Source: a virus
Virus record (IMG/VR): IMGVR_UViG_3300036885_000168
Coordinates: 1 to 35,422 of that record
Length of the DNA stretch: 35,422 nt
Direction: 5' to 3' (one strand)
Under the pieces are notes generated by a model. It worked only from the letters and a program-made list of their open reading frames with translations. It was not told where the DNA came from and did not search any database. Both the position numbers and the translations under genes were made by a program. Below, one piece after another: positions 18,684 to 33,129 of the stretch; position 1 is the first letter of the stretch; every line of letters begins with the position of its first letter.

Positions 18684-19134
18684 TCATCTTCTTCGCCAAA
18701 TACATTAACTTTCCCGATGCGAAATCTATCGCGAACTGTAATAGTTCTCTCTCCTCGGGAACAACTTGGGCCATATTTTTAATCAACATGACGCATGTCT
18801 CTTTATCGGGAACAACCCAGATAAATGAGATCTCTTCTAGATGCGCATTATATTTAAAAAGCGCCTGATCATAGTCAGGTGTCGGACAAGAATTACGCGC
18901 GAAAAAATAGTTGCGTAGAACATTCTCTAAGAGGCGCTCTTTTTTAGTTATTACAACTATGTAGAAATCGCCTTGATATTTTGACTTATTAGAATTAACG
19001 CATTCTATTAAATTCGCGCAGTACTCTTTGATTTGTTCATTAGTTTGATCGATTATCGAGTGATTGTTATTGCTCGCTTTCGCTTGCAACGCCACAGCGG
19101 CAGCCCCTACAGTGGGGAACTTTGGATCTTCCAT
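18667..19134 (-). CDS. hypothetical phage protein, 155 aa
   Basis: 155 residues from ATG 19134. Predicted helix (VGAAAVALQAKASNN, IIDQTNEQIKEYCANLIECV) is followed by strands (GDFYIVVITKKERLLENVLR, HLEEISFIWVVPDKETCVML) and a C-terminal helix (ELLQFAIDFASGKLMYLAKK). Its length and place beside the scaffold resemble conserved uncharacterised genes in this type of late cluster. No active-site motif is visible. Function is unknown. Confidence 0.5.
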   Translation of the reverse strand: MEDPKFPTVGAAAVALQAKASNNNHSIIDQTNEQIKEYCANLIECVNSNKSKYQGDFYIVVITKKERLLENVLRNYFFARNSCPTPDYDQALFKYNAHLEEISFIWVVPDKETCVMLIKNMAQVVPEERELLQFAIDFASGKLMYLAKKMNGENE

Positions 19135-19191
19135 TACTTCTCTCTCTCAACATTTCTCTAATCTTCATCACCGCTAAATAAATTATAGCTA

Positions 19192-19377
19192 TCATTTTCC
19201 TTTTTTGGGTATTTTCGCTCCTGCTTTGCGTGCCTCGGAAAGCGCTATTGCAACCATTTGCGAACGCTTTTTAACGACAGGGCCCTTTTTACTGCCGCTA
19301 TGCAATTCACCCATTTTCCCTTCGTGCATTACTTTTTCAATCTTGGCTTTACCCTTAGATTTCTTCTTTTTTGGCAT
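19192..19377 (-). CDS. small basic protein, DUF6496-like
   Basis: 61 residues from ATG 19377. Lys-rich ends flank the core KVMHEGKMGELHSGSKKGPV followed by KKRSQMVAIALSEARKAGA, which I recognise as the DUF6496 type common in phages and plasmids. The basic tails suggest nucleic acid binding. It begins a run of three tiny Lys- or His-rich proteins (19192-19792), which may be packaged or DNA-associated. Confidence 0.7.
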   Translation of the reverse strand: MPKKKKSKGKAKIEKVMHEGKMGELHSGSKKGPVVKKRSQMVAIALSEARKAGAKIPKKGK

Positions 19378-19385
19378 CTTGCGTC

Positions 19386-19538
19386 CTATTTAGCTCTTGA
19401 GGTTTCCTCAAAAGCGATACGATCATCGATATATTTACTTTTTAATTTCTTATTCTTCTTGGGCTCATTGGGAAGCGGTCCCATGACCGCGTCCCTTATC
19501 TTTTTAGCCTTGCCCTTAGGCCGATAGGCCACAGGCAT
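19386..19538 (-). CDS. 50-residue basic protein
   Basis: ATG 19538 to TAG at 19386-19388, eight bases before the DUF6496-like gene. The sequence (MPVAYRPKGKAKKIRDAVMG, PLPNEPKKNKKLKSKYIDDR, IAFEETSRAK) is Lys-rich with a short acidic end. It resembles its neighbour in composition but not in motif. The spacing within the run of small genes supports it. Function is unknown. Confidence 0.5.
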   Translation of the reverse strand: MPVAYRPKGKAKKIRDAVMGPLPNEPKKNKKLKSKYIDDRIAFEETSRAK

Positions 19539-19540
19539 GC

Positions 19541-19792
19541 TTAGACTTTCTTAGGTACGTTATGCGCGCGCCTCTTGCTGTTATCTTCAGACTTCTGATG
19601 ATCGATGCCTCTCATTGTGTCATCAAGGTTTTCAGGCATATAATCACTATCTTTAGGATATGGTTTCATAACCAATGCTTCAGGCATATTGGCATGTGCC
19701 CCACCATGATGTGGGATCATTCCCGAATCAGCTTTCTCCAGACGACGAACATCATCGTGATCTTCATAACTACCGTGATATCTTTTTGGCAT
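19541..19792 (-). CDS. His/Asp-rich small protein, 83 aa
   Basis: ATG 19792 follows AAAGGG at six bases. A TTG fifteen bases upstream is in frame but less likely. The protein has many His, Asp and Met residues (KRYHGSYEDHDDVRRLEKAD, GMIPHHGGAHANMPEALVMK) and no clear hydrophobic core. It could be disordered or metal-binding. It ends three bases before the next small gene. No family was recognised. Confidence 0.5.
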   Translation of the reverse strand: MPKRYHGSYEDHDDVRRLEKADSGMIPHHGGAHANMPEALVMKPYPKDSDYMPENLDDTMRGIDHQKSEDNSKRRAHNVPKKV

Positions 19793-19883
19793 GTGATGCC
19801 CTTTCAAAACTACAGTCCGGCAGATCGTGACAAAATGTCACATACTACCGCTGCAAGGTTATTAAAACCCCTAATGTGGGGAC

Positions 19884-20000
19884 TCATTTCTTCTTTTTTT
19901 TGATTATCTCTTTAATATCTTTTTTTTCGGCCTTCTCATGGCGAGCCTCTTCTTTTTCCCACTTTTTATAAGGACTCTTATAGCCGCTTTTAGCTTTCAT
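19884..20000 (-). CDS. 38-residue Lys-rich protein
   Basis: ATG 20000 is chosen because GGAG lies six bases upstream. An in-frame ATG at 20048 would give 54 residues with a weak ribosome binding site. The peptide (MKAKSGYKSPYKKWEKEEAR, then a Lys/Glu helix ending in KKKKK) is probably a charged single helix. The gap 19793-19883 on its downstream side shows no other gene. Confidence 0.4.
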   Translation of the reverse strand: MKAKSGYKSPYKKWEKEEARHEKAEKKDIKEIIKKKKK

Positions 20001-20052
20001 CTCATGCTCCAATTCCAATAAATAATATTCGGTTAATGATTTTATCATGAGA

Positions 20053-20244
20053 TTATTTTACTTCGTTCAAAGTTGAGTCCATAAAATTTTTAAATTTTTT
20101 ATGGCATTCGGGACAAAGATCGTAATTGTGATAAATATCTTCCGTGTCTTCTACCATAAAGATATAAGCTGCAAAAGAATCAAATATCTTCTTGCATCGA
20201 TCACATTTTTTTTCATATAAATTACATTCTTTTGGCCGGCTCAT
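20053..20244 (-). CDS. small Cys4 (zinc-knuckle) protein
   Basis: 63 residues from ATG 20244, overlapping the Fic gene stop by four bases. CDRCKKIF near residue 14 and CPECHKKFKNF near residue 44 form two CxxC pairs around an AAYIFMVEDTED strand. The layout is shared with 17052-17255 and 21457-21663. I infer a small zinc-binding fold. Translational coupling to the Fic gene raises the chance that the two act together, but there is no direct evidence. Confidence 0.55.
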   Translation of the reverse strand: MSRPKECNLYEKKCDRCKKIFDSFAAYIFMVEDTEDIYHNYDLCPECHKKFKNFMDSTLNEVK

Positions 20245-20903
20245 TCCATTCCCGATTCCATTAATGCTTTAAAAGGATCAGCGCATCCTCTATTTTCTAA
20301 AGTCGTTTTAATAGACGCAAAATAATGTTCTCGATCTTTTTTTCTAATAATCGCGAAGTATTTTCCCTTATTTAATAAAACCAGATTCATAATCAATCTA
20401 GCCATACGTCCGTTGCCATCAATAAAAGGATGAATTAGAACAAAATTACTATGCGCTTCGGCAGCAAATGTTAAAGGGTCTATCTCCGTAAGAAACATAT
20501 TCTCTGGAGCTAATGGAGCGGTTATTTTTCCTAGATTAAGCCATTGCATAAATCGATTCATAATTCGGGGAACTAAAGTCCAATTAGGGAATCTCAATTC
20601 GGGATCACCAACTCTGACATTAACCTTTCGCAACTTGCCCGCTTCTTCATTGTTAATATCTTTTAATAATATTTTGTGAATAGCCAAGATATCATCCAAT
20701 TTCAAATCTTTAAGGCTTTTACGCGATAAATCACAGATATAATCAAACGCTTTATGATGATTGACGATCTCTTGAAATTCTCTGTCTGATTTATCTGGGA
20801 CTCTCTTGCCTTCTGCTATCGCGTCAATTGTTTCTTGCAATGTATAACTATTGTTTTCAATCGCGCATGATTCATAAGTAAATTCATATTCTCTGTTATC
20901 CAT
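20241..20903 (-). CDS. Fic-domain AMP/UMP-transferase with N-terminal inhibitory motif
   Basis: 220 residues from ATG 20903. The catalytic motif HPFIDGNGR lies at residues 158-166 with the expected His, Asn and Arg and a following MARLIMN. Residues 12-17 (SCAIEN) fit the (S/T)xxxE(G/N) inhibitory helix of class II Fic proteins, in which the Glu blocks ATP. Such enzymes usually transfer AMP to Ser, Thr or Tyr of target proteins. The gene lies between a Cys4 protein and the endolysin in a late region. Possible targets are host proteins or phage lysis factors. It appears intact and self-inhibited, not degenerate. Confidence 0.9.
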   Translation of the reverse strand: MDNREYEFTYESCAIENNSYTLQETIDAIAEGKRVPDKSDREFQEIVNHHKAFDYICDLSRKSLKDLKLDDILAIHKILLKDINNEEAGKLRKVNVRVGDPELRFPNWTLVPRIMNRFMQWLNLGKITAPLAPENMFLTEIDPLTFAAEAHSNFVLIHPFIDGNGRMARLIMNLVLLNKGKYFAIIRKKDREHYFASIKTTLENRGCADPFKALMESGME

Positions 20904-26168: not shown

Positions 26169-26319
26169 GGCCTACAAGCCGAACTCTCATCGGCAACGTC
26201 CTACTGTTATCAGCCGACTGGTTAACAACCTTTGCTTCAGTTGCGAGCCTGTGCTGTTTGTTGATAGGAAAGAACTGTGCAGGTTCTCGACTTCGATATA
26301 TTTAATCTTCTTGTAGGCC
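26169..26319 (-). ncRNA. structured RNA candidate closed by a 10-bp stem
   Basis: GGCCTACAAG (26169-26178) and CTTGTAGGCC (26310-26319) are perfect complements and enclose about 130 bases with no open frame. Inside are GCCGA/TCGGC (26178-26194, seven-base loop), GGTT/AACC near 26220 and AGAAC/GTTCT (26271-26287, seven-base loop). The strand is inferred from the neighbouring tRNAs. I cannot match it to a named RNA family with confidence. Confidence 0.45.
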
Positions 26320-26332
26320 TATCGTTTCTGTA

Positions 26333-26381
26333 GCCTCGGCCAATAACTTTCGCAGGGGATACCCGCTAGGCGTACCGAGGC
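26333..26381 (-). ncRNA. small stem-closed RNA element
   Basis: GCCTCGG (26333-26339) and CCGAGGC (26375-26381) form a perfect seven-base stem around 35 bases. The leftward RNA has UA after the 5' arm, as a tRNA would, and an inner GCGGG/CCCTGC-type hairpin. It is too short for a cloverleaf. It is probably a domain of the same RNA as the preceding element. Confidence 0.4.
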
Positions 26382-26693
26382 ATTTTATATTCCCCAAAGA
26401 CATCATTGTTTAGTCTTTAGCATAGAGATTTGCACTCAAGAATATAAATATCGATTTTTTAAACCTAATTTTTAAACCTAATTTTAAAATACTGCCCATA
26501 TAAGAACCCTAGAAAGAACGACCCTAAAAGATAAGGATAAACTAACTAGGCCATTCGCTATCTGCAAGAGATTGCGCACCTAACTTAAACCTAGAAACTT
26601 AAGTCTTACTTTTTTATAAACCTATAAACCTAGAAACTTAAGTCTTACGAACTTTAAATGAGATCTTTTAAGGATCTTGCGGTCTTTCCCGCC
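26382..26693. repeat. AT-rich non-coding stretch with direct repeats
   Basis: No gene was seen in these 312 bases. TAAACCTA recurs at least five times. A 24-base sequence starting TAAACCTAGAAACTTAAG is present exactly twice (26586-26609 and 26625-26648), 39 bases apart. A TTTAAACCTAA pair lies at 26458-26483. An AAAGAC/GTCTTT hairpin is near 26400 and a GCGG/CCGC hairpin near 26685. Confidence 0.6.
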
Positions 26694-26764
26694 GTCGTAA
26701 CATAGGAATCGAACCTATAATCCAAGGTTATCAGCCTCGTGTCCTACCATTAGACCAGTTACAT
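26694..26764 (-). tRNA. tRNA-Ile (GAT), weak acceptor end
   Basis: D-stem GTCT/GGAC, anticodon stem CGAGG/CCTTG with loop CTGATAA (anticodon GAT), and T-arm ATAGG-TTCGATT-CCTAT are good. The acceptor ATGTAAC/GTTACGA has an A-A mismatch at 1-72 and a T-G at 2-71. The discriminator would be C, where Ile normally has A. No CCA is encoded. Confidence 0.65.
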
Positions 26765-26837
26765 TTGTGATGTCGGATTTGAACCGACTACCCCAAGCTT
26801 AGTAGGCTTGTGCTCTAGCCAAATGAGCTAATCGCGG
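26764..26837 (-). tRNA. tRNA-like gene with anticodon ACT, degenerate acceptor
   Basis: D-stem GCTC/GAGC, anticodon stem CAAGC/GCTTG with loop CTACTAA (anticodon ACT, Ser AGU), and T-arm GTCGG-TTCAAAT-CCGAC are intact. The short variable loop and body look like tRNA-Thr. Only four of seven acceptor pairs form (CCGCGAT/ATCACAA). Its discriminator base overlaps the first base of tRNA-Ile. It may be a pseudo-tRNA or a tRNA-like domain of a larger RNA. Confidence 0.5.
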
Positions 26838-26887
26838 CTATTTCTTTTTTATCGTTTTTTGAGCATCTCGTGTTCAAAATGCTCTTG

Positions 26888-26915
26888 TTTATATGTCAGT
26901 ATAATTTTTTTTCAA
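26888..26915 (-). promoter_or_regulatory. promoter candidate for the tRNA region
   Basis: Leftward TTGAAA (26915-26910), a 16-base spacer and TATAAA (26893-26888). It points into the tRNA cluster and is followed by a GAGCAT/ATGCTC hairpin (26861-26884) at the likely transcript start. Confidence 0.4.
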
Positions 26916-26927
26916 AGATCAACTTTT

Positions 26928-27037
26928 AGGGCCATTTAACACAGCTCTTACGAGGATTCGTCAATCCTACCTAATCCGCCATTGCGTCTAGGCCCGTCAC
27001 TTATGTATCTCGCACCCGAAAGTTCGGGAATGACCCT
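26928..27037 (-). ncRNA. structured RNA candidate upstream of the tRNAs
   Basis: AGGG (26928-26931) pairs with CCCT (27034-27037). Inside are AGGATT/AATCCT with a four-base loop (26953-26968), CCTA/TAGG (26970-26992) and CCCGAA/TTCGGG (27015-27028). No open frame crosses it. The multi-branch arrangement and its place between a gene and tRNAs suggest a folded RNA. The gap 26838-27058 holds this element, the promoter candidate and nothing else that I can see. Confidence 0.45.
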
Positions 27038-27058: not shown

Positions 27059-27580
27059 CTAATTTATCGGACTTAATTCCGTTGTAGCATTAATAATTTC
27101 AAGCGTAGCATCAATTAAGCTTGGCTCCGAGCGATACAACTCAAGCTTCTTATCTCGTTCGCTGGGATCGAAATACAAGCGTCTCTTGGTAATAGTTTGA
27201 GGCGAACTTGGAGTTAATTGAGATGTGTAACCTTCTTTCAGGCCTTTATCAGTTAACGCCTTTTCAATTGCTTCATCTGATTTGGCTAAATCGCGACGTC
27301 TGTGCACCCATTCGGCAATTGTTTTCTTCACAAACTTGCCACCAAGTTCAATTGTAACTTCGGTTTCAATATTAGTCTTCTGAATGCTTATGCGTAAGAA
27401 ACCAATTTCTTTATAAATATCATGAGCGCTTTGTACCCAGCCCGTAACTTCACGTTTCTGATCGGGATATGTAGGAGTTTCGCACTCCAAATCAGCGCAA
27501 TATTTACTTATTTTCTCTTTCAAATCGTCCGCTTTGCGTTGAAGGTCTTTCACCTTCTTCATTGCTTCAATTATTTTCAT
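27059..27580 (-). CDS. conserved phage protein, helical with basic core
   Basis: 173 residues from ATG 27580. The N-terminal coiled coil (MKKVKDLQRKADDLKEKISK) is followed by YCADLECETPTYPDQKREVT, ISIQKTNIETEVTIELGGKF and VKKTIAEWVHRRRDLAKSDE. The last is a distinctive segment I recognise from uncharacterised phage genes that lie near terminases. The C-terminus (KRRLYFDPSERDKKLELY) is charged. There is partial resemblance to DIP1984-type proteins in the opening coiled coil. No catalytic motif was seen. It may be a head- or packaging-associated protein. Confidence 0.55.
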   Translation of the reverse strand: MKIIEAMKKVKDLQRKADDLKEKISKYCADLECETPTYPDQKREVTGWVQSAHDIYKEIGFLRISIQKTNIETEVTIELGGKFVKKTIAEWVHRRRDLAKSDEAIEKALTDKGLKEGYTSQLTPSSPQTITKRRLYFDPSERDKKLELYRSEPSLIDATLEIINATTELSPIN

Positions 27581-31298: not shown

Positions 31299-32225
31299 TT
31301 AAACTTTAGATTTTTCTTTTTCCATCAAACGCTTTAAAACTTCTAAGCTTTCTTCCATAAAATTGGCATGCGGTTTTAAAGGGGGATTTAAATAAAGAGA
31401 TTTATATTTTTGCGTTTGTTCGAACTTTTCGACTTCAGTGTATTTCTTAGCTTCTTTTTTGTAATAAGGCACTTGATTGTTCAAAGGATTTCTCCAAATA
31501 GCCGACTCTGCTTGTGATACGGTCATAGTTTTAATTTCGGCAAGATGATCTTCTTGTGATTTATATTGTTTCATATATTTCCCAAAAGGTAAATCAGCCA
31601 CTACGTCCGTGTATTTAAATACTAAATTCATATTATGCGAAGACTGTGGATTTTCGCAATACAAAATTTCATTTTTGTATGGTTTTCTTGGAACGGACAC
31701 AACACTAGTTGGAACGGACACAATATTGGTTGGCTGTGTGATCTTAAACTTAGATAAAAGTTGTAAAATATCTCCCGAAATTCCCTTATTTTCTTTTTTT
31801 TGGGAAATTTCGAGTTTTTCGAACGAAGTTTTACTCTCTATGTTGTTACTAGAGAGATTAAAATTAATCAATAAAGTAAATAGCAAGGCACTTTTCAAAT
31901 AGCCAAATAGGACGGCCAAGACATCAAGGTGGTGTATATCAAAAATGTTATTGTTTTTGAACTTACGGATGACGGAGATAAAGCCTGCTTTTTCTAGCTG
32001 GACGGTATGAGCTGAAATGGTATCAACATGTAAGCCTGTTTGAACTGCTATATATTTACGAGCCCATTGGCGCTTGCGGGAGTAATAAGCGGCTTTAATA
32101 AAAGCCTTAAAAGAAGTATATAATTCGGATTGTTTTGGTAATGAATCCAAAAAGTTAGATACTTTATAGAAATAATCTTGTTTTTGCTTGACTAGAGATA
32201 CGTTTATGTTATTATGAGTTCTCAA
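31299..32225 (-). CDS. winged-helix replication-type protein
   Basis: 308 residues from TTG 32225, placed seven bases after a perfect AGGAGGT (32233-32239). An ATG at 32336 in the same frame would add 37 residues including a (Lys-Ser)7 tract but has no ribosome binding site. A winged helix lies near residues 60-115 (KAAYYSRKRQWARKYIAVQT, GLHVDTISAHTVQLEKAGFI), then a hydrophobic stretch and a basic tail. The C-terminus (MTVSQAESAIWRNP to the end) is helical and charged. This matches phage replication initiators or replisome organisers. A short duplication gives IVSVPTSVVSVPR. It may bind an origin nearby. Confidence 0.6.
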   Translation of the reverse strand: MRTHNNINVSLVKQKQDYFYKVSNFLDSLPKQSELYTSFKAFIKAAYYSRKRQWARKYIAVQTGLHVDTISAHTVQLEKAGFISVIRKFKNNNIFDIHHLDVLAVLFGYLKSALLFTLLINFNLSSNNIESKTSFEKLEISQKKENKGISGDILQLLSKFKITQPTNIVSVPTSVVSVPRKPYKNEILYCENPQSSHNMNLVFKYTDVVADLPFGKYMKQYKSQEDHLAEIKTMTVSQAESAIWRNPLNNQVPYYKKEAKKYTEVEKFEQTQKYKSLYLNPPLKPHANFMEESLEVLKRLMEKEKSKV

Positions 32226-32244
32226 TTGAAATACCTCCTGATGT

Positions 32245-32286
32245 GATTTTGATTTTGATTTTGATTTTGATTTTGATTTTGATTTT
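32245..32286. repeat. seven exact GATTTT hexamers
   Basis: Seven uninterrupted copies of GATTTT (TCAAAA on the minus strand). If translated from ATG 32336 they encode seven Lys-Ser pairs. If the gene starts at TTG 32225 they lie in the leader. The hexamer unit keeps frame when it slips. Confidence 0.85.
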
Positions 32287-32334
32287 GCATTGGGTTTTTC
32301 CTTATAAGTAGATAATGGCAACCTGGCGGGAGAC

Positions 32335-32350
32335 ATTAACTACGGTTAAT
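32335..32350. promoter_or_regulatory. operator-like dyad upstream of the replication-type gene
   Basis: ATTAAC (32335-32340) and GTTAAT (32345-32350) are perfect arms around TACG. The dyad overlaps the alternative ATG at 32336. It could be an HTH binding site in the promoter of gene 31299-32225. Confidence 0.4.
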
Positions 32351-32420
32351 ATTTCAAACATTTAAAAAGACAGAATACGGGAAATTTCGACAAAACTCAA
32401 GCTCGAAATAGCGATGTTAG

Positions 32421-32451
32421 AAACGAGCCCCAGAAATGGGGCCTTTCGTTT
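32421..32451 (-). terminator. hairpin terminator after gene 32454-32786
   Basis: GCCCC/GGGGC core (32427-32442) with a six-base loop, extended by AAACGA/TCGTTT outer arms (32421-32426, 32446-32451). The T tract is short on the minus strand (CGTTTCT). It lies directly behind the gene stop. Confidence 0.5.
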
Positions 32452-32453
32452 GC

Positions 32454-32786
32454 TCAAAAATCTTTTATGTGCGCAATAAAACCTTTAACTTTGTTTTTTA
32501 TTTCTCTAGACAAACATTCTCTTTCATCATCATTTTCGCTGACTCCAAATTTATCCAATGTCCTAGAGAAATAAAAAAATGTAAGTATAAGCGCTAAATA
32601 AGTAACTACTTGTTCCGTATATTTATCTTCAATTTCGATTCTTGATGTTTTTTCATCATAAATCTCACTTGCACCATGCACTTTTTCAAATAAAGATTCA
32701 CATACATCGTTTATAACTTCTAAGTTATATCCCGATTTTTCCATAATTAAAGCGGCTTTAGTTAAATCTGATTTTTTAAACTTCAT
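32454..32786 (-). CDS. hypothetical helical protein with one hydrophobic segment
   Basis: 110 residues from ATG 32786; TTG 32792 is in frame but weaker. Helices are charged (SDLTKAALIMEKSGYNLEVI, NDVCESLFEKVHGASEIYD). TEQVVTYLALILTFFYFSRT near residues 60-80 is a hydrophobic segment that may cross or bind the membrane. The end is acidic and then basic. It overlaps the HTH gene upstream by eleven bases, so both are probably on the repressor transcript. Function is unknown; superinfection exclusion is one possibility. Confidence 0.5.
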   Translation of the reverse strand: MKFKKSDLTKAALIMEKSGYNLEVINDVCESLFEKVHGASEIYDEKTSRIEIEDKYTEQVVTYLALILTFFYFSRTLDKFGVSENDDERECLSREIKNKVKGFIAHIKDF

Positions 32787-33129
32787 TTTCAATTTCTTGC
32801 CTATTCATATATAAATCAGTGAATTTACGTAACGCTTTGTATGTTTTTAATGACATTGTGCTTTTATGTGAGTTCTTTTTGCGTCGTTTATCATAACGTC
32901 GTAGCGGTTGTTTATGCGCTTCTATACCACTTCCCAGCAAAAAATCATAAACCGTACTTAAACATAAATCGGCCTTGAAAGCTATTTCCATTAAGCACAA
33001 ATCTTCTTTTTTGGCCATTTTTACAAGATCTTTACGCAAAATCTCGATTTTTATCGCAAAGTCTAGCCCCAAAGACTTTTCAAGTTGTCTTTGAAACCTT
33101 CCGGCTTGCGGTTTTTTAGCTTCAGTCAT
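32776..33129 (-). CDS. HTH protein, repressor candidate of the early switch
   Basis: 117 residues from ATG 33129, behind GAAGA. A helical start (FQRQLEKSLGLDFAIKIEIL) precedes an HTH-type segment (LMEIAFKADLCLSTVYDFLL) and a basic linker (HKQPLRRYDKRRKKNSHKS). TMSLKTYKALRKFTDLYMN resembles the last helix of small Cro/XRE-like proteins. It is transcribed away from the early operon across a region with three related dyads, the usual place for a phage repressor. No protease or oligomer domain is present, so it is more like a Cro or a short repressor than a full CI. Confidence 0.65.
   Translation of the reverse strand: MTEAKKPQAGRFQRQLEKSLGLDFAIKIEILRKDLVKMAKKEDLCLMEIAFKADLCLSTVYDFLLGSGIEAHKQPLRRYDKRRKKNSHKSTMSLKTYKALRKFTDLYMNRQEIENEV

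What the first reader, a model, noticed from the sequence alone, without database searches (positions are those of the whole stretch)
26169..27037. Possible large structured phage RNA with tRNAs embedded in it
About 870 bases between tRNA-Asn and gene 27059 have no protein gene. They contain three stem-closed modules (26169-26319, 26333-26381, 26928-27037), many smaller hairpins, and two tRNA-like units in the middle with poor acceptor stems. Large ornate RNAs of phages such as GOLLD are known to occur beside tRNA genes and are of similar size. The stems are visible directly. That they form one RNA is inference. A promoter candidate at 26888-26915 could split the region in two.
Basis: partly seen in the sequence, partly recalled or inferred. 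Interest (0 to 1): 0.85.

Follow-up and report, generated by a model that had tools for sequence, protein, structure and literature searches.

The report
tRNA-bearing RNA paired with DIP1984 protein
Many uncultured phages, and unrelated bacteria and plasmids, carry an unreported structured RNA next to one small protein of unknown function (DIP1984 family); the RNA often holds a whole, a rearranged or a partial transfer RNA, which points to an unrecognised RNA-protein machine that mimics or carries tRNA.

Summary
The conserved RNA is about 410-430 nt on the minus strand (26489-26921): boxA-like signal, pseudoknotted core, tRNA-Ser and tRNA-Ile, 7-nt repeats, 3' domain. The three stem-closed modules lie outside it and have no relatives.

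A covariance model built without the window finds only this place (E=5e-4). Covariation is strong across phages, and no Rfam family matches. Every viral relative of the adjacent gene (27059-27580) that I examined has the RNA beside it, and nearly every RNA found independently has the gene. The protein belongs to the DIP1984/DUF6847 fold family (PDB 3KDQ).

Bacterial DIP1984 genes also have an RNA, a different one, 4-101 nt downstream: 23 of 23 such genomes, against 3 of 376 others (p=2e-34). It has T-arms, a covarying helix and weak 7-nt periodicity.

So DIP1984 is the partner of structured, often tRNA-like RNAs in cells, plasmids and phages. Function is untested. My best guess is a ribonucleoprotein whose tRNA-like limb engages tRNA-handling machinery; an AbiF or type III toxin-antitoxin-like pair is the main rival.

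The parts
27059..27580 (-). Protein partner: 173-aa divergent DIP1984/DUF6847-family protein, gene immediately 5' of the RNA
   Evidence: NCBIfam NF038048 E=1.6e-8, 34.9 bits, below the 70-bit cutoff; 34 of 35 relatives match; AF2 pLDDT 94.4; Foldseek only to PDB 3KDQ DIP1984, E=6e-5
26910..26921 (-). boxA-like antitermination element TGATCTTTGAAA
   Evidence: 1 mismatch to TGTTCTTTGAAA; 15 of 46 phage RNAs have it 24-34 nt 5' of the core, shuffled mean 0.11
26889..26902 (-). 5' strands of closing helix P1 (ATACTG) and P2 (CATATAA)
   Evidence: pair with 26489-26503 in the MFE fold; P1 and P2 covary across phages
26861..26884 (-). 5' hairpin GAGCATTTTG..CGAGATGCTC
   Evidence: 10-bp hairpin in the fold; many relatives have a hairpin at this place, seen by eye
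26764..26837 (-). embedded tRNA-like unit, ARAGORN tRNA-Ser(ACT), without the long variable arm of tRNA-Ser
26694..26764 (-). embedded tRNA-like unit, ARAGORN tRNA-Ile(GAT)
   Evidence: Rfam tRNA 50.4 bits
26583..26690 (-). AAG/AAGTTT short-repeat tract with a local duplication
   Evidence: 7-8 nt periodicity in 40 phage copies: lag-7 identity 0.36, shuffled 0.27; sequence
26489..26585 (-). 3' domain: hairpin, GAATGGCC, helix P5a CCTAG/CTAGG (26546-26550 with 26508-26512), P2' TTATATG (26497-26503), P1' CAGTAT (26489-26494)
   Evidence: cmsearch R1, built without the window, E=4.7e-4, only significant hit; 72% identity to L072 4139-4267, E=2e-9
26489..26921 (-). whole conserved tRNA-bearing RNA

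Best explanation
The region encodes a structured non-coding RNA that works together with the adjacent DIP1984-family protein as a two-part, mobile ribonucleoprotein module. Shown by comparison: the RNA is real and conserved, has a closing helix P1 and a core in which the strand between P2 and P4 (GAGAUAAAAA in most relatives) pairs with the loops of two 3' hairpins, carries a variable tRNA-derived limb (normal tRNA, permuted tRNA, anticodon-arm or T-arm remnant) and a 7-nt repeat tract, and is almost always beside the protein gene. Bacterial members of the same protein family are followed by an RNA too, of different sequence. Inferred: the protein binds this RNA, perhaps as several copies along the 7-nt repeats, and the tRNA-like limb docks on a tRNA-recognising partner (ribosome, EF-Tu, RNase P, or a tRNA-cleaving defence nuclease), acting as decoy or tether. 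In the window the core is partly degenerate (GAGAUAAAAAC reduced to AACAAG), so this copy may be weakened.
For: P2 182/200 paired against 125.0 +/- 5.4 shuffled; P4 137/160 against 105.1 +/- 3.3. P1 mean stem 8.0 bp against 5.76 +/- 0.22. P5a has 22, 14 and 13 sequences changed on both sides at three pairs. Model R1 finds the window and 53 of 81 sources around relatives of the protein at E<1e-6 plus 10 at E<0.04 (sources include training loci and duplicates); all nine inspected without such a hit show the RNA or its core by eye. Flanking genes share no family, at most 3 of 124, so the pair travels alone. Cells: R2 finds the RNA in every held-out DIP1984 locus and in no negative; 23/23 linkage, p=2e-34, gaps 4-101 nt; helix H1 114/120 against 87.0 +/- 3.6. 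tRNA-type hairpins in 18 of 29 inserts without an annotated tRNA, shuffled 1.7 +/- 1.3. Permuted tRNAs have 5-7 bp acceptor stems in all eight copies examined and 4-5 bp anticodon-side stems in seven. Rfam YrlA, itself a permuted tRNA mimic, scores 43.7 bits in L003.
Against: No expression, binding or phenotype data. Phage and cellular RNAs do not find each other with covariance models, so common origin is not shown. Some inserts have no tRNA-like part, and L069's anticodon arm reads as a UUCG-type hairpin (by eye), so decoding is not the point. Protein scores are below the NF038048 cutoff. The 7-nt periodicity in cells is weak (lag 7 0.30 against 0.26). Shuffle tests ignore relatedness of sequences.
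Confidence: 0.62

Rival explanations
1. RNA antitoxin and protein toxin or effector (type III TA or AbiF-like): the DIP1984 protein is harmful and the adjacent RNA neutralises it by binding; plasmids and phages keep the pair for maintenance or exclusion.
For: Small two-part, sporadic, mobile unit: 23 of 399 and 4 of 399 genomes above cutoff, 370 plasmids of which 341 Acinetobacter, unrelated phage contexts. AbiF/RCd22 is a precedent of a prophage protein with an adjacent neutralising ncRNA (PMC12373285).
Against: No nuclease or HEPN-type motif recognised; no PADLOC match; no abiF motif found by Rfam; in cells the RNA is downstream at every locus examined; the core is more elaborate than repeat-only antitoxins; tRNA elements unexplained.
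Confidence: 0.22
2. The RNA is a scaffold whose internal loop is a neutral landing site for tRNA genes; RNase P and RNase Z cut the tRNAs out and they are ordinary phage tRNAs.
For: Whole tRNAs of many identities (Asn, Ser, Met, Thr, Leu, Gln, Ile, Lys) occur at the same place; L072 carries a 17-tRNA array; GOLLD linkers sometimes hold tRNAs (PMC12286853).
Against: Permuted tRNAs, anticodon-arm-only and T-arm-only modules cannot yield ordinary tRNA, yet keep good stems; T-arms recur in the unrelated cellular RNA.
Confidence: 0.2
3. The RNA is a cis-regulatory leader or 3'UTR that controls expression of the protein gene.
For: Tight adjacency; in some phages the RNA ends close to the start of the gene (L020, L023, L026).
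Against: The RNA is downstream in most phages and in all cells examined, has its own boxA in a third of phage copies, and lies about 1.7 kb from the gene in L041.
Confidence: 0.1
4. RNA-only cage like GOLLD or ROOL, with the protein gene a passenger.
For: Phage RNA near tRNAs with pseudoknots and tRNA in a linker, as described for GOLLD (PMC12286853).
Against: Near-absolute linkage to one protein family; no Rfam match to GOLLD or ROOL.
Confidence: 0.05
5. Chance stems and decayed tRNA genes in an intergenic region.
For: The three modules outside the core have only modest z-scores and no relatives.
Against: Covariation, model hit and protein linkage of the middle part.
Confidence: 0.02

Closest known systems
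GOLLD RNA (and ROOL)
   Same: Phage-encoded structured RNA near tRNA genes; GOLLD linkers can contain tRNAs; conserved 3' part and variable 5' part (PMC12286853)
   Different: Half the size, different sequence and structure, no Rfam hit, linked to one protein family
YrlA / bacterial Y RNA with Rsr (Ro60)
   Same: RNA with a permuted tRNA-like domain paired with a protein; YrlA model scores 43.7 and 31.8 bits in L003 and L040
   Different: Below the 69-bit gathering score, no Rsr identified beside it, DIP1984 instead, extra pseudoknot core and 7-nt repeats; many copies have a normal tRNA or none
AbiF-ncRNA and type III toxin-antitoxin pairs
   Same: Small mobile unit of one protein gene and one adjacent ncRNA (PMC12373285)
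   Different: Protein family unrelated by profile; no PADLOC match; RNA not made of long antitoxin repeats; toxicity untested
Two-piece (permuted) tmRNA
   Same: Permuted order T-arm, acceptor, linker, acceptor, D-arm inside a larger pseudoknotted RNA (tmRNA architecture from general knowledge)
   Different: Canonical D-arm and anticodon side present, only weak partial tmRNA matches, no tag reading frame recognised
DIP1984/DUF6847 ('septicolysin') family
   Same: Protein fold and NCBIfam profile
   Different: No RNA partner or function recorded in the papers I could search

Membership tests
GOLLD (Rfam) | match to the GOLLD covariance model | tested here: not met
   No hit at gathering or at E up to 10 in the window nor at gathering in 15 relatives
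GOLLD (Rfam) | length above about 800 nt for many members | tested here: not met
   Length about 410-430 nt here, core 257-406 nt in relatives
GOLLD / ROOL | RNA-only multimer (nanocage) | not testable with these tools
   needs cryo-EM or sizing of purified RNA
YrlA Y RNA | Rfam YrlA score above gathering (69 bits) | tested here: not met
   43.7 bits in L003, 31.8 in L040; window no hit
YrlA Y RNA | adjacent rsr (Ro60) gene | tested here: inconclusive
   No Ro/TROVE family among the 25 most frequent families of flanking genes; not searched specifically
DIP1984 / NF038048 protein family | score above the curated cutoff of 70 bits | tested here: not met
   34.9 bits; cellular homologues over the cutoff score 93-204
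DIP1984 / NF038048 protein family | fold of PDB 3KDQ | tested here: met
   Foldseek E=5.6e-5, probability 1.00, the only significant PDB entry
Type III TA / AbiF | protein toxic alone, neutralised by adjacent RNA | not testable with these tools
   needs expression experiments
New phage RNA family (this report) | 3' domain model R1 plus P1/P2 closure | tested here: met
   R1 E=4.7e-4 without the window in training; P1/P2 in the fold
New phage RNA family (this report) | GAGAUAAAAACYGG core strand | tested here: not met
   Window has AACAAG after P2; degenerate copy

The most novel reading that the evidence does not exclude
DIP1984-family proteins found across Bacillota, Actinomycetota, Pseudomonadota, Cyanobacteriota, plasmids and phages are the protein half of an unrecognised class of ribonucleoprotein whose RNA half carries tRNA or tRNA parts and 7-nt protein-binding repeats, used in phage-host or plasmid-host conflict over tRNA and translation.
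Probability: 0.45. Interest if true: 0.95.

Novelty: categorically new. Interest (0 to 1): 0.87.

Why it matters
It defines two structured RNA families absent from Rfam, gives a protein family of unknown function (misnamed septicolysin, on hundreds of Acinetobacter plasmids) a first candidate molecular partner, and shows permuted and fragmentary tRNAs kept inside phage RNAs. Because cultured hosts and possible cultured phages exist (Enterococcus faecium and Acinetobacter plasmids, Streptomyces; Cronobacter phage vB_CsaP_009, Aeromonas phage LAh_9), RNA-protein binding and function can be tested directly.

Tried and rejected
GOLLD, ROOL and other Rfam families: no hit; an EGFOA-assoc-1 match (E=0.07, 16 of 224 bits) was judged chance. 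Packaging-RNA idea (gene lies between terL and portal here): rejected, because relatives sit in unrelated contexts. Self-splicing permuted intron-exon: considered for the permuted tRNAs; Rfam shows no group I or II match and many copies hold whole tRNAs. Shine-Dalgarno-decoy reading of AAGG repeats: weakened, since the group nearest the window has AAG, not AAGG. Homology of phage and cellular RNA by model: not shown. Cultured-phage and plasmid searches with the phage protein: no match. DNA of the three outer modules against fetched loci: no relatives. An automatic regex count of the cellular helix used a wrong register and was replaced by the alignment count.

Full report
Observation. The window is a 35.4-kb virus record with all genes around the finding on the minus strand. 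Between the gene at 27059-27580 and tRNA-Asn there is no credible protein gene. ARAGORN finds tRNA-Ser(ACT) and tRNA-Ile(GAT) inside it. None of the three modules has a relative in the fetched loci or in cultured phages.

Relatives. A scan of IMG/VR with the adjacent protein gave 25 relatives. In each, next to the gene, a similar non-coding stretch can be read: a strand GAGAUAAAAACYGG, a hairpin, a tRNA or tRNA piece, a run of AAGG-type repeats, and a 3' domain GAAYGUCC...AAGUU...AACUU...AGGCUUCCUGUNNGGGAG. A DNA pattern for the 3' domain alone gave 30 contigs, two of which are false positives; 27 distinct copies, including loci already held, passed a 5'-motif filter. Where the held sequence reaches, these have the protein gene nearby; five copies at stretch ends (L027, L031, L033, L040, L045) could not be fully checked, though L031 and L033 show its C-terminus. 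A scan of 84,980 prokaryote genomes found only one true copy, on a contig binned with a candidate-division WOR-3 genome. A wider protein search gave 112 relatives, 80 kept. The covariance model R1 of the 3' domain (35 sequences, window left out) hits 53 of 81 sources at E<1e-6 and ten more below 0.04; those sources include loci used in training and duplicate contigs. Nine loci without such a hit were read by eye and all show the RNA, in L137 only its core. In the window R1 gives one significant hit, 26490-26585 minus, E=4.7e-4, and the same stretch is 72% identical to L072.

Structure. Helix P5a has compensatory changes in 22, 14 and 13 of 35 sequences at three pairs. P2, the five bases 5' of the GAGAUAAAAA strand with the five bases 3' of AGGCUUCC, pairs in 182 of 200 cells against 125.0 +/- 5.4 after shuffling partners. 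P4, CYGG with CCRG inside the P5 loop, pairs in 137 of 160 against 105.1 +/- 3.3. P1 joins the two ends (mean longest stem 8.0 bp against 5.76 +/- 0.22). The strand P2-GAGAUAAAAA-P4 thus braces the loops of two hairpins, a double pseudoknot. The repeat tract has a 7-8 nt period (lag 7 identity 0.36, shuffled 0.27). A boxA-like TGTTCTTTGAAA lies 24-34 nt before the core in 15 of 46 copies (shuffled 0.11). In the window P1, P2 and P5a are kept and boxA has one mismatch, but the GAGAUAAAAAC strand is reduced to AACAAG; this is a degenerate copy.

The tRNA limb. Of 41 copies classified by script, 11 hold a whole tRNA, 5 a permuted tRNA, 8 only a T-arm and 17 neither; the script is rough, and some of the last class hold an anticodon-arm-like hairpin. 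Permuted means that T-arm and 3' acceptor come first, then 5' acceptor and D-arm; eight examples have acceptor stems of 5-7 bp, and seven of them an anticodon-side stem of 4-5 bp. Among 29 inserts without an ARAGORN tRNA, 18 have a tRNA-type hairpin with a 7-nt loop (anticodon arm or T-arm), 1.7 +/- 1.3 expected. Rfam's YrlA model, a permuted tRNA mimic, scores 43.7 bits in L003, below its cutoff.

The protein. It matches NCBIfam DIP1984 over its full length but below the cutoff. The AlphaFold2 model (pLDDT 94) matches only PDB 3KDQ, a functionally unknown protein of Corynebacterium diphtheriae. Flanking genes of 78 distinct phage loci share no family: the pair is a self-contained cassette, not part of the packaging region.

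Cells. Cellular DIP1984 genes were fetched from Clostridia and related genomes, Pseudomonadota, and plasmid records including Actinomycetota, Cyanobacteriota, Enterococcus and Acinetobacter. Immediately downstream lies another RNA of about 200 nt with a 3' motif GAGGGYGGGNNNGGGG, often a tRNA T-arm, and a helix H1 (114 of 120 cells paired against 87.0 +/- 3.6, two or three Watson-Crick types at every pair). A model R2 from 24 of them finds the RNA at all held-out cellular DIP1984 loci, including Acinetobacter at E=0.009, and in no negative and no phage locus. In one sample of 399 genomes, all 23 genomes with DIP1984 above cutoff have the RNA 4-101 nt downstream, while 3 of 376 others have a hit, one of them beside a truncated DIP1984 (p=2e-34). 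No Rfam family matches it.

Interpretation. Shown: two RNA families, each linked to the DIP1984 protein fold. Inferred: the protein binds the RNA; the tRNA-like limb contacts tRNA-recognising machinery. [quoted passage not shown] The AbiF-RCd22 pair (PMC12373285) is the precedent for the antitoxin rival. I cannot separate these by sequence.

Leads. Two cultured phages found by fold search, Aeromonas LAh_9 and Cronobacter vB_CsaP_009, have a protein of the size of the matched one (218 and 209 aa) with weak similarity to the phage profile, followed by non-coding gaps of 605 and 384 nt; the Cronobacter gap folds with z -4.3, the Aeromonas gap with only -1.7. Neither is hit by R1 or R2 convincingly at that place, so an RNA there is only suggested.

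Limits. Shuffle tests ignore relatedness; R1 and R2 E-values are rough; phage loci are from metagenomes, so hosts are mostly unknown; the literature search covers open-access papers only, and absence there does not prove that the system is unreported.

Noticed in passing
L146-L151, L155-L163, L172-L193, L198-L204 (downstream of DIP1984): Cellular DIP1984 genes are followed by their own conserved ~200-nt RNA (3' motif GAGGGYGGGNNNGGGG), not in Rfam.
   Followed up: yes
L206 (MK838115) 18994-20255; L205 (LC519601) 31979-32992: Cultured phages LAh_9 and vB_CsaP_009 carry a DIP1984-like protein followed by a 605-nt and a 384-nt non-coding gap; in LAh_9 the preceding gene is annotated as a ProQ-like RNA chaperone.
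   Followed up: partly
window 26169-26319, 26333-26381, 26928-27037: Three stem-closed segments outside the conserved RNA, modest folding z-scores, no relatives found; L005, L070, L071 and L072 also have extra structured-looking stretches between gene and RNA.
   Followed up: partly
L069 3918-3993: tRNA with anticodon TTA (ochre suppressor type) directly 3' of the RNA.
   Followed up: no
L072 3594-5626: 17 tRNA genes, one inside the RNA and most in an array directly 3' of it.
   Followed up: no
G610, G694, G977 (L198, L199, L188): Tandem copies of DIP1984 with RNA, or a second RNA nearby, in bacterial genomes.
   Followed up: no
L137 upstream of 3001: Minimal RNA: only the GAGATAAAAACTGG strand and the CCAGAAACTTCTGAGGCTTCC part remain, without tRNA, repeats or P5 5' strand.
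   Followed up: no
L011 5951-6829: Gene 3' of the RNA encodes a protein of long NSGN/NSGH-type tandem repeats.
   Followed up: no
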